Positions 16,771 through 54,184 of a stretch of 64,000 nt of DNA are shown here, in pieces. Below the pieces are notes generated by a model that was not told where the DNA came from, did not search any database, and was given only the letters and a program-made list of their open reading frames with translations. Location: positions 559,726 to 623,725 of the forward strand of contig NZ_NKFP01000004.1 in assembly GCF_002215035.1 (NCBI RefSeq), in the 5' to 3' direction. Each line of letters starts with the position of its first letter. Within the stretch, counting starts at the first letter, position 1. A program made the position numbers and the translations under genes. Source of the stretch: Leptolyngbya ohadii IS1. GTDB taxonomy: Bacteria; Cyanobacteriota; Cyanobacteriia; Elainellales; Elainellaceae.

Positions 16771-17801
16771 AAGATTTTCCTTCACCCGAATTCAGCTCTT
16801 TCTACCAGCAGTTTCTTCCGAAGACCGCGACGAGAGCAACCCCCCTAATTCTGCTGACGGATGACGATCGAGTGACGCGAATTCAAGTCCGGCGCTTTCT
16901 GGAACGTGAAAAGTATCAGGTCGTTGAAGCTGCCGACGGCACAGAAGGACTGGACGCCTTTAAGCGGCTGAAGCCAGATATGGTGATGGTGGATGCCATG
17001 ATGCCCACCATAAACGGGTTTGAATTTTGCACTGAGCTTCAGAAAATACCGGAAGCAAGCTATACGCCTGTGCTGATGATTACCGGACTGGATGACGAGA
17101 AATCCGTCGATCGTGCCTTTGCTTCCGGCGCAACGGACTACATAACAAAACCTATCCACTGGGCAGTGCTGCGGCAGCGGGTGCGGCGACTCATTCAGCA
17201 GGCACAGCTCCTTCGCTACCTGGAAGCCGCAAATAAAATGTTTCAGCAGCTCTCTCTGGTGGATGAACTGACGCAGCTAGCCAACCGTAGACATTTTGAT
17301 ATGAGACTAGATCAGGAATGGCGACGGATGGCAAGGGAGCAGTTACCGCTGTCCCTCGTTCTCTGCGATATTGATTCTTTCAAGAACTACAACGACGCCC
17401 AGGGGCATCTAAAAGGCGATAGCTGCCTGCGTCAGGTCGCCCGACGAATTAGTGCGGTGGCAAAGCGCCCTGCTGATCTGGCGGCTCGCTATGGCGGGGA
17501 AGAATTTGCGGTAATTTTGCCCAACACCTCCAGCGAGAGTGCGTTAGTGCTTGCAGAAAAAATTCGCCTGGGGCTGCAAACCCTGAAACTCGCCCACCCC
17601 AATTCGATCGTGAGTCCCTGGGTTACGCTCAGTATTGGCGTTAGCAGCGCGCTCCCCCATCAATTTCCTAAGCGCTCTGCCTTAGACCTGCTGGCTGCCG
17701 CAGACTCCGCTCTCTATCAGGCAAAAGCTGCCGGACGCGATCGGGTTGCCTTCTTTGAACTGACGGCTCCATCCCGATTTCAAACGATCGAAAGTTTCTG
17801 A
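16767..17801 (+). CDS. REC-GGDEF response regulator, diguanylate cyclase
   Basis: 344 residues from ATG at 16767, with a purine-rich GGAAAGGGAG just upstream, overlapping the REC-HPt gene by ATGA. REC domain about 25-145 with phosphoacceptor in MVMVDAMMPTINGF and the canonical Lys (DYITKPIHW). GGDEF domain with GGEEF and an RPAD I-site. Paralogue of the protein at 11290; between them they flank glgP. The pair REC-HPt plus REC-GGDEF suggests a phosphorelay that sets c-di-GMP level, which in cyanobacteria often governs aggregation, motility or exopolysaccharide. Confidence 0.93.
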   Translation: MKDFPSPEFSSFYQQFLPKTATRATPLILLTDDDRVTRIQVRRFLEREKYQVVEAADGTEGLDAFKRLKPDMVMVDAMMPTINGFEFCTELQKIPEASYTPVLMITGLDDEKSVDRAFASGATDYITKPIHWAVLRQRVRRLIQQAQLLRYLEAANKMFQQLSLVDELTQLANRRHFDMRLDQEWRRMAREQLPLSLVLCDIDSFKNYNDAQGHLKGDSCLRQVARRISAVAKRPADLAARYGGEEFAVILPNTSSESALVLAEKIRLGLQTLKLAHPNSIVSPWVTLSIGVSSALPHQFPKRSALDLLAAADSALYQAKAAGRDRVAFFELTAPSRFQTIESF

Positions 17802-22084: not shown

Positions 22085-22135
22085 TCTCCCCTGCTCCCCC
22101 GCTTCCCACTCCCTACTCCCCACTCCCCACCCCCT
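22085..22135. repeat. STRR-type heptamer tract abutting the tldE start codon
   Basis: CCCCTGCT, CCCTACT and CCCCACT units fill the 50 bases up to the ATG, leaving no recognisable ribosome-binding site for tldE. Confidence 0.7.
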
Positions 22136-25130: not shown

Positions 25131-25181
25131 GAGAGTGGGGAGTAGGGAGTAGGGAGTGGGAAGCGGGGGAGCAGGGGAGAG
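25131..25181. repeat. STRR-type heptamer tract
   Basis: GGAGTGGGGAGTAGGGAGT... units between the DUF2584 gene and ispD. Confidence 0.7.
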
Positions 25182-50718: not shown

Positions 50719-51465
50719 TCAGATGAATACTAAAGGCTTATCTTTGAAGGGAGCAAACGCATCGGCATCGAAGCGATAGAGGCTGGCGGGTCGTCCGGCT
50801 CCCCGTGAGACTTTAATTCCAGTGTCCTGCAAAAAACCGAGCTTGAGCAGGCGCGATCGAAAATTTGAGTAGTCAGAAAAATTTTCGCCCAGGACGGTCG
50901 TATAGAGCTGGTACAAATCGCTGAGGGTAAACAGTTCCGGCAACACTTCAAAGGCAATCGGGCTGTACTCCAGCTTGTTACGAAGCCGACGATAGCCGTA
51001 CTGCAAAATCTGCGGATGATCGAACGCCAGGGACGGCACCTGCTGAAGCGGATACCAGGCAATCCCGCTTACCCCATCGGCAATCAGCTCGGATTCGGCA
51101 AATCGCACCAGGGCAAAATAGCTGACGGACAGGTAGCGCACCCCGTACTGAGGATAAGCTTCACGCGGATCGCGATCGGGTCCGCCAAACGTATAAAGCT
51201 GTTCCAGGTAAAGATTTTCCACGCGAATTTTCTCCGCCAGCACCCGATACGCTGCATCCTCCAGGGATTCCCCCTTGCGAACCAGGGTTCCGGGCAGGCT
51301 CCACTGACCCAAAAACGGCTCCTCCCGCCGCATCACGAGCAGCACCATCAGCCGATTCTGTGCCGTATCAACTGAGAAAATCACGTTGTCCACGCCCACT
51401 TTAAAGTCGGCTAAAACTCCCGCCGCGAGAGGGTCAGTAGATTTTCTGGGGCTGCGTCCTGCCAT
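50719..51465 (-). CDS. nrtR: NrtR-like Nudix-related transcriptional regulator
   Basis: 248 residues from ATG at 51465. Nudix fold about 20-150, but the Nudix box is degenerate: LVRKGESLEDAAYRVLAEKI has Val and Lys where REuxEE needs Glu, so hydrolysis is unlikely. C-terminal winged helix about 165-240 (LPELFTLSDLYQLYTTVLG, NFRSRLLKLGFLQDTG) is the NrtR DNA-binding part. NrtR proteins sense ADP-ribose and repress NAD-synthesis operons. Location among pncB, nadD and nadE fits this exactly. The 5' end overlaps nadD by 32 bases. In the duplicate copies at 52305-52619 the start context is preserved. Confidence 0.85.
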   Translation of the reverse strand: MAGRSPRKSTDPLAAGVLADFKVGVDNVIFSVDTAQNRLMVLLVMRREEPFLGQWSLPGTLVRKGESLEDAAYRVLAEKIRVENLYLEQLYTFGGPDRDPREAYPQYGVRYLSVSYFALVRFAESELIADGVSGIAWYPLQQVPSLAFDHPQILQYGYRRLRNKLEYSPIAFEVLPELFTLSDLYQLYTTVLGENFSDYSNFRSRLLKLGFLQDTGIKVSRGAGRPASLYRFDADAFAPFKDKPLVFI

Positions 51466-51723
51466 GCGTGTCCTGCCATGCGTAAAGTTGCTCTCGGTGA
51501 ATGTATGCCTCGATCGGCGGAATAACGGCATCGGTGTCTTTGTATTCCCGAACGGCGGTCGAGGAAACATCGGGAACGGGAATTGGGGCGATCGTGACGC
51601 TGGCTCCTATTTGTCTCAAAGGCTCCAGGTCTGCCTCGCTTAAAGGATAGCCCGGACGCGGAATTACGAGCAGCTTCACCTGCGCCAGCAGTTCCTCAAT
51701 CCGATACCAGCGGGGCAACTGGG
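51398..51723. repeat. Source segment of the nadD/nrtR-junction duplication
   Basis: 326 bp spanning the nadD 3' end and nrtR 5' end. Direct copy at 52300-52611 (312 bp); the copy lacks a 14-bp tandem repeat (TGTCCTGCCATGCG) present here around 51459-51480. The left edge is the natural palindrome ACTTTAAAGT (51398-51407). Confidence 0.85.
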
Positions 51724-52039
51724 CAACCAGATCGGAGCCGATCACCAGCGTAAAGTCTGCCGCCTGCCAACGCTCTCTGGCCCGCTGTACCGTAATCAAG
51801 GCTCTGGGATGGCTGAGTTCCGGCTCCAGACGCAGATTGTGGCGCGGCGGGTCAATATCCTCGATCAGCAGTTGCAGCATTGCCGCCCGATGCATTAGCG
51901 CAGTCTGGTGAGACTTAAACGGATTATCCGATGCCCAGACTGCCACCTCATCAAAGTGATCCGCTAACCAGGCGAGGATTGCCTGATGTCCGGCGGTGGG
52001 GGGGTCGGCGCTGGTTCCGAAGAGGGCGATGTTTGGCAT
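51434..52039 (-). CDS. nadD: Nicotinate-nucleotide adenylyltransferase
   Basis: 201 residues. Nucleotidyltransferase fold: ALFGTSADPPTAGHQAILAW (GxFDPxHxGH site, with Ser-Ala-Asp-Pro-Pro), DFTLVIGSDLVAQLPRWYRI and SSTAVREY (SSTxIR). Makes deamido-NAD from nicotinate mononucleotide and ATP. C-terminus reads LYAWQDTHGRTQPQKIY because of a 14-bp tandem duplication; the duplicate copies encode LYAWQDAAPENLLTLSRREF instead, which is probably ancestral. An STRR tract lies immediately before the start. Confidence 0.92.
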   Translation of the reverse strand: MPNIALFGTSADPPTAGHQAILAWLADHFDEVAVWASDNPFKSHQTALMHRAAMLQLLIEDIDPPRHNLRLEPELSHPRALITVQRARERWQAADFTLVIGSDLVAQLPRWYRIEELLAQVKLLVIPRPGYPLSEADLEPLRQIGASVTIAPIPVPDVSSTAVREYKDTDAVIPPIEAYIHREQLYAWQDTHGRTQPQKIY

Positions 52040-52094
52040 GGTTGGGGAGTGGGGGGAGCAGGGGAGAGGGGTGGATGAGTGGATGGGTGGGTGG
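52040..52094. repeat. STRR-type tract, left boundary of the palindromic island
   Basis: G-rich heptamer sequence. Positions 52054-52094 are repeated exactly, inverted, at 52789-52829 (41 bp). Confidence 0.85.
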
Positions 52095-52196
52095 CTTTGC
52101 CTTCGGAGGCTTTCATGACGGGGATGCCGTCGATTTCCACAAGTTTGTAGACGCCGTTGATCGGTTTGCCGGTGACGAGTTTGGTGCCGATGCCGT
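52090..52196 (-). pseudogene. Stray pncB fragment
   Basis: 107 bp identical to 53135-53241 in the body of pncB (encodes part of GTKLVTGKPINGVYKLVEI). Its last 10 bases (CCGATGCCGT, 52187-52196) are shared with the nadD-derived inverted arm that follows, a microhomology junction. Confidence 0.85.
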
Positions 52197-52422
52197 TATT
52201 CCGCCGATCGAGGCATACATTCACCGAGAGCAACTTTACGCATGGCAGGACGCAGCCCCAGAAAATCTACTGACCCTCTCGCGGCGGGAGTTTTAGCCGA
52301 CTTTAAAGTCGGCTAAAACTCCCGCCGCGAGAGGGTCAGTAGATTTTCTGGGGCTGCGTCCTGCCATGCGTAAAGTTGCTCTCGGTGAATGTATGCCTCG
52401 ATCGGCGGAATAACGGCATCGG
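52187..52422. repeat. Perfect 236-bp palindrome
   Basis: 118-bp arms (52187-52304 and 52305-52422) with no spacer, centred on ACTTTAAAGT. Each arm is a copy of the nadD 3' / nrtR 5' junction. Confidence 0.9.
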
Positions 52423-52619
52423 TGTCTTTGTATTCCCGAACGGCGGTCGAGGAAACATCGGGAACGGGAATTGGGGCGATCGTGACGCTGGCTCCTATTT
52501 GTCTCAAAGGCTCCAGGTCTGCCTCGCTTAAAGGATAGCCCGGACGCGGAATTACGAGCAGCTTCACCTGCGCCAGCAGTTCCTCAATCCGATACCAGCG
52601 GGGCAACTGGGGAACCCGA
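52305..52619 (-). pseudogene. Duplicate nadD 3' fragment, direct copy
   Basis: Encodes the last about 95 residues of NadD from PRWYRIEELLAQ to LYAWQDAAPENLLTLSRREF, with no start region and no N-terminal ATP-binding half. Not a functional gene. Confidence 0.85.
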
Positions 52620-52785
52620 TCGGGTTCCCCAGTTGCCCCGCTGGTATCGGATTGAGGAACTGCTGGCGCAGGTGAAGCTGCTCGTAATTCCGCGTCCGGG
52701 CTATCCTTTAAGCGAGGCAGACCTGGAGCCTTTGAGACAAATAGGAGCCAGCGTCACGATCGCCCCAATTCCCGTTCCCGATGTT
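52454..52785. repeat. Perfect 332-bp palindrome
   Basis: 166-bp arms (52454-52619 and 52620-52785) meeting at CCCGATCGGG without spacer. The right arm is an inverted nadD fragment (read on the plus strand it again gives PRWYRIEELLAQ). Confidence 0.9.
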
Positions 52786-52852
52786 CCCCCACCCACCCAT
52801 CCACTCATCCACCCCTCTCCCCTGCTCCCTGCTCCCTGCTCCCCTGCCTCTT
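52786..52852. repeat. STRR-type tract, right boundary of the island and 3' end of pncB
   Basis: C-rich heptamers; 52789-52829 is the exact inverted copy of 52054-52094. The pncB frame runs into it and ends there. Confidence 0.85.
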
Positions 52853-54184
52853 CACCGCTTCCGTCAACCGCTCTAGCTCAACCGAAATCTCCGGCGAAAC
52901 GGACTCAGGATCATGAATGCGGCGAATTCGATCGGGGAGGGTGTGAAGGCTGGTGAGGGCGCGATCGGCGATCGTCTCTAGAGAATCAGCGGGTGCGCTG
53001 CGCTGTCCTTGTTTGAGGATGGGTTGGAGGAGGGGCTGCTCGTGGCGGGAGGGGGATTCGGTGATCAGCCCGAGGCGATCGCCCTTCAGTTCTCCGGCTT
53101 CAAGGTGGCGGAAGATCTGTTTGCGTCCGGGGTAGGTGGCTTTGCCTTCGGAGGCTTTCATGACGGGGATGCCGTCGATTTCCACAAGTTTGTAGACGCC
53201 GTTGATCGGTTTGCCGGTGACGAGTTTGGTGCCGATGCCGTAGCTGTCGATCTGTGCCCCTGCGGTCTGGAGGCGATCGATCTCGAATTCGTCTAAGTCA
53301 CCGCTGGCAACGATCGGGGTGTTAGGCAAAAGCTGACGGATATGTTGGGATTGGGAAACCAGATCGCCGGAGTCTAAACGGACGGCTCTGAGAGACAGTT
53401 TTTCCTGCTGGGCGCGATCGGCAAGTCTTTCGGCTGCGGCGATCGCATCGTAGGTGTCAATTAATAGCGTTGCGCCAGGGAAATAGCGGTGGAAGGCTTG
53501 AAAGGCTTCGTCTTCGGTTCCTTCCAGGGCAGCGAGTGCCATGACCAGGGCGTGTGCCATAGTACCGCTCGGCTTTTGCCCTAATTGGATTGCGGCGAGA
53601 ACGTTGGAGGTTGCATCAAATCCGGCGGCGAGTGCGGCTCTGGCGGCGAATAGGGAAGCCTGGGGACCAAATGCCCGTCTCGTGCCGAATTCCAGCAGGG
53701 TAGCAGATCCGGCGATGTCCCGCATTCGGGCGGCTTTGGTGGCAATCAGGCTTTGATAGTTGAGGATATTCAGCAGGCAGGTTTCTACGATTTGCGCCTG
53801 CCACAGGGGAGCCTCAATTCGCAGGATTGGCTCGTTCGCGAATACTACGGTTCCTTCGGGTACTGCCCAGACATCGCCTGTAAAACGTCCACTTGCCAGA
53901 ACTTCCCAAAAGCGATCGGGCACGTTGGCAAAAATTCCGGTGGCTTGCAGAGCGGCAATCTGTTCGGAGGTGAAACTAAACTGCTCCAGATAGTCGATCG
54001 CCTGTGCCAAGCCCATTGCCACCATATAGCCAAAGCCTTCGGGCAAACGACGGGTAAATAGCTCGAAGCTGGCGCGTTTTTCCGCGATCCCCTCGCCCAC
54101 GTAGCAGGCAGCCATCGTAAGCTGATAGAGATCGGTGAGCAGACTGTAATCCTGGGAAGTCAGCGAAAGTGCCGTGTCGGGCAT
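52805..54184 (-). CDS. pncB: Nicotinate phosphoribosyltransferase
   Basis: 459 residues from ATG at 54184 (an upstream ATG at 54244 would add 20 residues). Joins nicotinate and PRPP to nicotinate mononucleotide in the NAD salvage route. Seen: YSLLTDLYQLTMAACYVGEG, LLEFGTRRAFGPQASLFAAR, ATLLIDTYDAIAAAERL, AVRLDSGDL and IDSYGIGTKLVTGKPINGVYK. The last 15 residues (KRQGSREQGAGERGG) are encoded by heptamer repeat, so the natural C-terminus has been altered. First gene of a block with nadD, nrtR and nadE, now separated from them by the palindromic island. Confidence 0.93.
   Translation of the reverse strand: MPDTALSLTSQDYSLLTDLYQLTMAACYVGEGIAEKRASFELFTRRLPEGFGYMVAMGLAQAIDYLEQFSFTSEQIAALQATGIFANVPDRFWEVLASGRFTGDVWAVPEGTVVFANEPILRIEAPLWQAQIVETCLLNILNYQSLIATKAARMRDIAGSATLLEFGTRRAFGPQASLFAARAALAAGFDATSNVLAAIQLGQKPSGTMAHALVMALAALEGTEDEAFQAFHRYFPGATLLIDTYDAIAAAERLADRAQQEKLSLRAVRLDSGDLVSQSQHIRQLLPNTPIVASGDLDEFEIDRLQTAGAQIDSYGIGTKLVTGKPINGVYKLVEIDGIPVMKASEGKATYPGRKQIFRHLEAGELKGDRLGLITESPSRHEQPLLQPILKQGQRSAPADSLETIADRALTSLHTLPDRIRRIHDPESVSPEISVELERLTEAVKRQGSREQGAGERGG

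What the first reader, a model, noticed from the sequence alone, without database searches (positions are those of the whole stretch)
52054..52829. Nested perfect palindromes bracketed by inverted heptamer tracts in the NAD operon
A 776-bp island between pncB and nadD contains a 236-bp palindrome (52187-52422) and a 332-bp palindrome (52454-52785), both without spacer, made of copies of the nadD/nrtR junction. A 41-bp exact inverted STRR pair (52054-52094, 52789-52829) frames it. Zero-spacer palindromes of this length are normally unstable in bacteria because SbcCD cleaves them. Either this host tolerates them, or the structure records fold-back replication or template switching. Multiple-displacement amplification chimeras also look like this.
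Basis: partly seen in the sequence, partly recalled or inferred. Interest (0 to 1): 0.85.

Follow-up and report, generated by a model that had tools for sequence, protein, structure and literature searches.

The report
Chimeric palindromes from assembly, not genome
The two perfect DNA palindromes between the NAD genes pncB and nadD are really in the assembled sequence, but similar scrambled fold-back patches recur across this cyanobacterial assembly, show almost no ageing, and in one place replace the start of the only copy of an essential gene, so they are most probably a sequencing or assembly artefact.

Summary
Observation confirmed: spacerless perfect palindromes at 52187-52422 (arms 118) and 52454-52785 (arms 166), side by side rather than nested, flanked by an exact 41-bp inverted heptamer pair. 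The island is a chain of local copies joined at short shared words.

It is not alone. In 2.08 Mb read from this 7.9 Mb assembly, 22 of 29 inverted-repeat clusters have an inverted alignment of at least 70 bp, many of several hundred bp at 98-100%; 380 kb of two single-contig family members had only short hairpins (about 4 expected, so weak on its own). Away from copy ends the copies differ at 3 of 7,354 positions. One island replaces the start of dxr, including GSTGSIG; no full dxr was found in the assembly, while 12 of 12 compared genomes have one. Two other islands coincide with a shortened permease and kinase. SbcC and SbcD are both encoded.

Best reading: amplification or assembly chimeras taken into the consensus (0.85). 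Against it: most islands look intergenic, no reads could be examined, and at nadD/nrtR the island, not the gene, matches relatives (no 14-bp duplication). In-vivo fold-back replication remains possible (0.1). Raw reads or one PCR would decide.

The parts
52054..52094 (.). Left heptamer (STRR) tract, 41 bp, exact inverted copy of 52789-52829
52085..52196 (+). 112-bp direct copy (99%) of pncB 53130-53241; enters at GGTGGC, leaves at CCGATGCCGT shared with nadD
52187..52422 (.). Perfect palindrome 1, arms 118, no spacer; axis ACTTTAAAGT is a short natural palindrome of the source
52296..52623 (+). Direct copy of nrtR/nadD 51394-51735, lacking one 14-bp repeat
52454..52785 (.). Perfect palindrome 2, arms 166, no spacer; axis CGATCG; two substitutions against nadD lie within 8 bp of the axis and are mirrored in both arms
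52616..52785 (-). Inverted copy (98.8%) of nadD 51566-51735
52789..52829 (.). Right heptamer (STRR) tract, overlapping the last codons of pncB
51456..51483 (.). 14-bp tandem duplication in the working nadD/nrtR junction, absent from the island copies and from the four relative loci printed (L010, L039, L011, L040; L010 and L039 give the same sequence)
51434..52039 (-). nadD, 201 aa, main source of the copies
50719..51465 (-). nrtR-type regulator, 248 aa (Nudix domain plus NrtR winged helix; below the cut-off of the NCBIfam NtrR equivalog), 5' end copied in the island
52805..54184 (-). pncB, 459 aa, source of the 112-bp copy

Best explanation
The island is most probably not in the cell's chromosome. 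It is one of many fold-back chimeras in this assembly. A 3' end, during amplification of the DNA or in local gap assembly, annealed back on itself or on a neighbour at short self-complementary or shared words (for example ACTTTAAAGT and CCGATGCCGT), was extended, and did so several times. The product entered the consensus where true reads across the pncB-nadD spacer were missing. Shown: the chain of local copies, the shared words at joins, the recurrence of such islands, the near absence of divergence inside copies, and the loss of true sequence at one other island (dxr). Inferred: that the same origin holds for this island, and that true reads were missing here. Undecided: whether the step was phi29 amplification, library PCR snap-back or gap filling.
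For: Recurrence: 17 perfect palindromes with arm of at least 35 bp and spacer up to 12 in 2.064 Mb of this genome, the window's two and one cut by a stretch end included; 22 of 29 inverted-repeat clusters in 2.084 Mb have an inverted alignment of at least 70 bp. In 380 kb of G003 and G008 the longest of 7 clusters was 58 bp and the longest perfect arm 20. Little age: in non-palindromic copy pairs of at least 100 bp, 3 of 7,354 aligned positions at least 40 bp from an end differ, against 67 of 3,430 nearer the ends, gaps left out. Loss of essential sequence: the dxr domain PF02670 is found in G000 only as positions 42-129 and 57-129, while 12 of 12 other genomes have 1-129; relative G001 has the GSTGSIG motif where G000 has other sequence with a stop. 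A permease (3-226/269, L169) and a kinase (1-200/263, L176) end at islands where similarity to G001 also breaks off, and in the L171 island the AIRS_C part of a SelD-like gene is left as a 62-101 piece. SbcC and SbcD are encoded; a 460-bp perfect palindrome kills E. coli when SbcCD is expressed (PMC4245961, abstract and section 12). MDA chimeras are 85% inverted, often local, and over 70% start at 2-21 nt of complementarity (PMC1855051, passages incl. abstract); complex multi-inversion palindromic reads from MDA are reported (PMC13265396, passages incl. abstract).
Against: No raw reads could be examined and the sequencing method is unknown. By eye most islands lie between predicted genes, as selection on real events would also give; high-copy repeats do not explain this, since 3 of 21 islands hold any. 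At this island no gene is lost. The island copies have the single 14-bp unit of relatives while the gene has two, which can be read as the island being older than the duplication; a second island (L138) shows the same relation. The G003/G008 control is small: about 3 to 4 islands expected, none seen. Phi29 chimeras are not expected, as far as I recall, to carry the mismatches seen near copy ends. Fold axes are not special: the central 6-mer is CGATCG at 4 of 15 spacerless axes, and CGATCG makes up 40% of all palindromic 6-mers in the sample.
Confidence: 0.85

Rival explanations
1. Real serial fold-back replication in the cell: a stalled fork switches template several times at microhomologies (as in MMBIR or tandem inversion duplication), and a recent burst left many intergenic palindromes that this cyanobacterium, perhaps through many chromosome copies, repairs rather than loses.
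For: Microhomology joins; most islands look intergenic by eye; mismatches cluster at copy ends, as error-prone restarts would give; island copies hold the 14-bp state of relatives.
Against: Hardly any divergence inside copies, so no spread of ages; the only dxr found lacks its NADPH-binding start; SbcC and SbcD encoded; nothing alike in 380 kb of two single-contig relatives, a weak control.
Confidence: 0.1
2. Real and kept because the host's SbcCD does not cut palindromes (inactive enzyme or other repair).
For: Long palindromes are present in the sequence.
Against: Both genes are open and score above their curated cut-offs; activity was not testable here. The same dxr damage speaks against any real origin.
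Confidence: 0.03
3. A functional hairpin or regulatory element of the NAD operon framed by heptamer tracts.
For: It sits between two genes of one operon.
Against: The four relative loci printed have plain spacers (about 230 bp from the last aligned pncB residue to nadD in G001); nearly all of the island is partial copies of neighbouring genes.
Confidence: 0.01

Closest known systems
Chimeras of multiple displacement amplification (PMC1855051, PMC13265396; passages seen)
   Same: Inverted, local copies, joined at short complementary words, multi-inversion palindromes
   Different: Amplification is not documented for this genome; mismatches near copy ends are not mentioned in the passages I saw
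Tandem inversion duplication and MMBIR-type template switching (recalled)
   Same: Serial inverted local copies with microhomology at joins
   Different: No age spread, an essential gene damaged, many sites at once
460-bp perfect palindrome in the E. coli chromosome (PMC4245961)
   Same: Spacerless perfect palindrome of similar length
   Different: Engineered; lethal when SbcCD is expressed
STRR heptamer tracts of cyanobacteria (label from the finding and recalled)
   Same: The 41-bp tracts at both island edges
   Different: Only 3 of 21 islands hold high-copy 14-mers, so such tracts do not define the islands

Membership tests
Amplification or assembly chimera | Inverted copies of sequence from within a few kb | tested here: met
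Amplification or assembly chimera | Short shared or complementary word at joins | tested here: met
   examined at the joins of the window island only
Amplification or assembly chimera | Recurs over the assembly without sequence age | tested here: met
   about a quarter of the genome was read
Amplification or assembly chimera | True sequence lost at some sites, essential genes included | tested here: met
   dxr at the L171 island; not at the window island
Amplification or assembly chimera | Minority or absent in reads of unamplified DNA | not testable with these tools
   no reads available
In-vivo template switching (MMBIR, tandem inversion duplication) | Microhomology joins | tested here: met
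In-vivo template switching (MMBIR, tandem inversion duplication) | Compatible with viability (no sole essential gene destroyed) | tested here: not met
   not met at the L171 island; met at the window island
In-vivo template switching (MMBIR, tandem inversion duplication) | Range of ages among events | tested here: not met
   3 of 7,354 interior positions differ; a single recent burst would also give this
Palindrome-tolerant host through SbcCD loss | sbcC or sbcD absent | tested here: not met

The most novel reading that the evidence does not exclude
A recent genome-wide burst of fold-back replication has planted dozens of perfect palindromes, up to about 1 kb and in one case 29 kb, mostly between genes of a living, SbcCD-encoding cyanobacterium, which survives them by a mechanism E. 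coli lacks.
Probability: 0.1. Interest if true: 0.85.

Novelty: not a real feature. Interest (0 to 1): 0.2.

Why it matters
If an artefact, a contiguous assembly rated 100% complete carries perhaps 80 false patches (22 clusters in 2.08 Mb, scaled to 7.9 Mb; the sample is not random), at least one of which breaks an essential gene; anyone mining it for palindromes, intergenic elements or gene losses would be misled. If real, it would go against what is known of SbcCD and long perfect palindromes from E. coli.

Tried and rejected
SbcCD loss: rejected, both genes present. Second axis as an ancestral nadD state: one site is Leu in 109 of 109 relative loci (some genomes appear twice), so that change belongs to the palindrome; the neighbouring Ala/Pro site varies and says nothing. 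Axis sequence imported from elsewhere: its 18-mer has no second exact copy in the genome. Plasmid origin: no near match in the plasmid collection; within the genome the listed matches are the island's own sources and short heptamer-type pieces. High-copy repeats as cause: 3 of 21 islands hold any, much as 15.6% of 752 control intergenic gaps do. A 14-bp duplication as an assembly signature: 14-bp units are not in excess over the genome. Early notes took 91-98% identity of some copies as proof of age; one search showed that the mismatches sit at copy ends, and I dropped it. CGATCG as a preferred fold word: a first count (8 of 16 palindromes with it within 6 bp of the axis, chance 3%) used the wrong background; against palindromic 6-mers it is 4 of 15 with 40% expected, so the idea is rejected. 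A larger difference count, 83 of 9,922, is made up of four 14-bp gaps (56), the non-palindromic centre of one L153 palindrome (16), five differences near 51-57 bp from the axis of another, and 6 others.

Full report
Observation. Palindromes 52187-52422 (arm 118) and 52454-52785 (arm 166) are perfect and have no spacer. A 41-bp pair, 52054-52094 and 52789-52829, is exactly inverted. The island lies between nadD (51434-52039, minus) and pncB (52805-54184, minus); nrtR (50719-51465) and nadE (48984 to about 50711) follow nadD. Family searches support the names: nicotinate-nucleotide adenylyltransferase (residues 3-191 of 201), nicotinate phosphoribosyltransferase (6-448 of 459), NAD+ synthase (1-562 of 575), and a Nudix protein with an NrtR winged helix that stays below the cut-off of NCBIfam's NtrR equivalog.

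Anatomy. Read along the + strand, the island is a chain of local copies. After the left heptamer tract comes pncB 53130-53241 in direct orientation, entered at a shared GGTGGC. At CCGATGCCGT, shared with nadD, it switches to nadD/nrtR, 51534 down to about 51400. At ACTTTAAAGT, a short palindrome of the source, it folds back and copies 51394 up to 51735. At CGATCG it folds again and copies nadD back to about 51566, then joins the right heptamer tract. Near the second axis two bases differ from nadD and are mirrored in both arms; so one arm was made from the other, not both from the gene. One of these sites is Leu in 109 of 109 relative loci, so the change is not an ancestral state.

The 14-bp clue. 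The working nadD/nrtR junction has a tandem 14-bp duplication (51456-51483). The island copies have one unit, and so do the four relative loci printed, L010, L039, L011 and L040. In the gene the duplication gives the NadD tail WQDTHGRTQPQKIY; with one unit it reads WQDAAPENLL, like relatives: of 32 tails caught by a pattern, 22 begin QDA. The L138 island shows the same relation, a 14-bp repeat in its source that the copy lacks. This can mean that the island is older than the duplication, or that the gene copy itself carries an assembly error. It does not decide.

Relatives. The order pncB-nadD-nrtR recurs in most of the relative loci. The nearest, G001 (about 80% DNA identity), has a plain spacer, about 230 bp from the last aligned pncB residue to nadD. 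In 757,532 bases of 109 loci from relatives the longest perfect arm was 31 (these loci surround nadD, and some genomes are in twice).

The island is one of many. I read 100 stretches of 20 kb from the same assembly: 60 cover C4 up to 1.26 Mb apart from the window, 20 are spaced over C6, 15 over C1, and 5 are the starts of small contigs. With the window they hold 17 perfect palindromes with arms of at least 35 bp and spacer up to 12. With one further stretch, 29 clusters of inverted repeats were found (2.084 Mb), 22 of them with an inverted alignment of at least 70 bp. The 7 weaker ones were dropped from later counts, and so was the 29-kb case described under 'noticed', leaving 21; two of these, L146 and L181, are themselves slight. 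Controls: 19 stretches of G003 and G008 (380 kb, single-contig genomes of the same family) gave 7 clusters, none over 58 bp, with perfect arms of 20 or less; at G000's rate 3 to 4 large ones would be expected, so this alone is weak. In 635,626 bases of loci L039-L118 there were 20 clusters, five of them reaching 70 bp but none over 96 bp, against several hundred bp in G000; many of these genomes are short-read assemblies that could have lost palindromes.

Little age. Over non-palindromic copy pairs of at least 100 bp in the 21 islands, 3 of 7,354 aligned positions lying at least 40 bp from a copy end differ, against 67 of 3,430 closer to an end (gaps are not counted, and bases in several pairs are counted several times). 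In the five pairs printed the mismatches lie near copy ends. Differences in longer palindromes sit mainly at their centres or outer ends. Events spread over evolutionary time would show a range of divergence; a single recent burst would not.

Damage. Thirty proteins beside 18 islands were scanned against Pfam. Four had no family and two only matches below cut-off, so they say nothing. Four proteins at three islands are incomplete on the island-facing side: Dxr (PF02670 from position 52) and a SelD-like protein without AIRS_C at L171, a permease at L169 (3-226 of 269), a kinase at L176 (1-200 of 263). In the other 20 I saw no clear cut. For dxr I searched whole genomes: G000 has only pieces 42-129 and 57-129, while 12 of 12 other genomes have 1-129. 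The G001 protein has ITLLGSTGSIG and about 50 residues that G000 lacks; G000 has unrelated sequence with a stop there. DXP reductoisomerase belongs to the only isoprenoid route known in cyanobacteria (established knowledge), so the L171 island can hardly be a true description of a living cell's genome. Similarity to G001 breaks off at the L169 and L176 islands too. For the SelD-like gene, AIRS_C at this place is a 40-position piece; six other AIRS_C matches exist elsewhere in G000 and were not sorted.

How such patches could arise. MDA makes mainly inverted chimeras, over 70% of them starting at 2-21 nt of complementarity (PMC1855051, passages with abstract), and MDA with long reads gives complex multi-inversion reads that can promote misassembly (PMC13265396, passages). 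The method used for this genome is unknown to me. N runs of 261, 361 and 5000 bases, the last perhaps a withheld stretch, and scattered Ns at the start of C3 show that some places were poorly resolved or masked. Fold axes show no preferred word once compared with palindromic 6-mers; my first count had suggested otherwise.

Against. By eye, most islands lie between genes (not formally counted), which true events under selection would also give, and high-copy repeats do not explain it. I cannot look at reads. The claim for the window island is by class: it loses no gene itself. SbcCD is encoded, and in E. coli a 460-bp perfect palindrome is lethal when SbcCD is expressed (PMC4245961, section 12); whether the enzyme of this host behaves alike is not known. 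A survey of 118,019 genomes reports that perfect repeats with arms of thousands of bases exist, almost only in bacteria (PMC13155455, passages), so long palindromes in assemblies are not unheard of.

Verdict. Observation right; most likely artefact (0.85); real in-vivo fold-back replication about 0.1.

Noticed in passing
G000:C1:902058-930987 (L217 and L228): A perfect palindrome of 28,930 bp, arms 14,465 bp, no spacer, inside a 1.55-Mb contig; sequence just outside its left edge has exact copies elsewhere in the genome. Either a contig joined to its own reverse complement or a very large recent inverted duplication.
   Followed up: partly
G000:C7:285928-287997 and C2:2844-4913: Two contig ends give the same matches with the same scores in opposite orientation, as if C7's end and C2's start were the same DNA left unmerged.
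   Followed up: no
L224:765-2900 (G000:C3): Scattered single Ns in the sequence, as if two disagreeing sequences were merged.
   Followed up: no
L138:9042-9190: A second source copy with a 14-bp repeat that its fold-back copy lacks, as at window 51456-51483.
   Followed up: partly
L164:16442-16668 and 16820-17046: Exact 227-bp direct repeat, in phase, mostly within the front part of an M23 peptidase frame.
   Followed up: no
window 22085-22130 and 25135-25180: A 46-bp heptamer-type tract repeated in inverted orientation at 98% about 3 kb apart.
   Followed up: no
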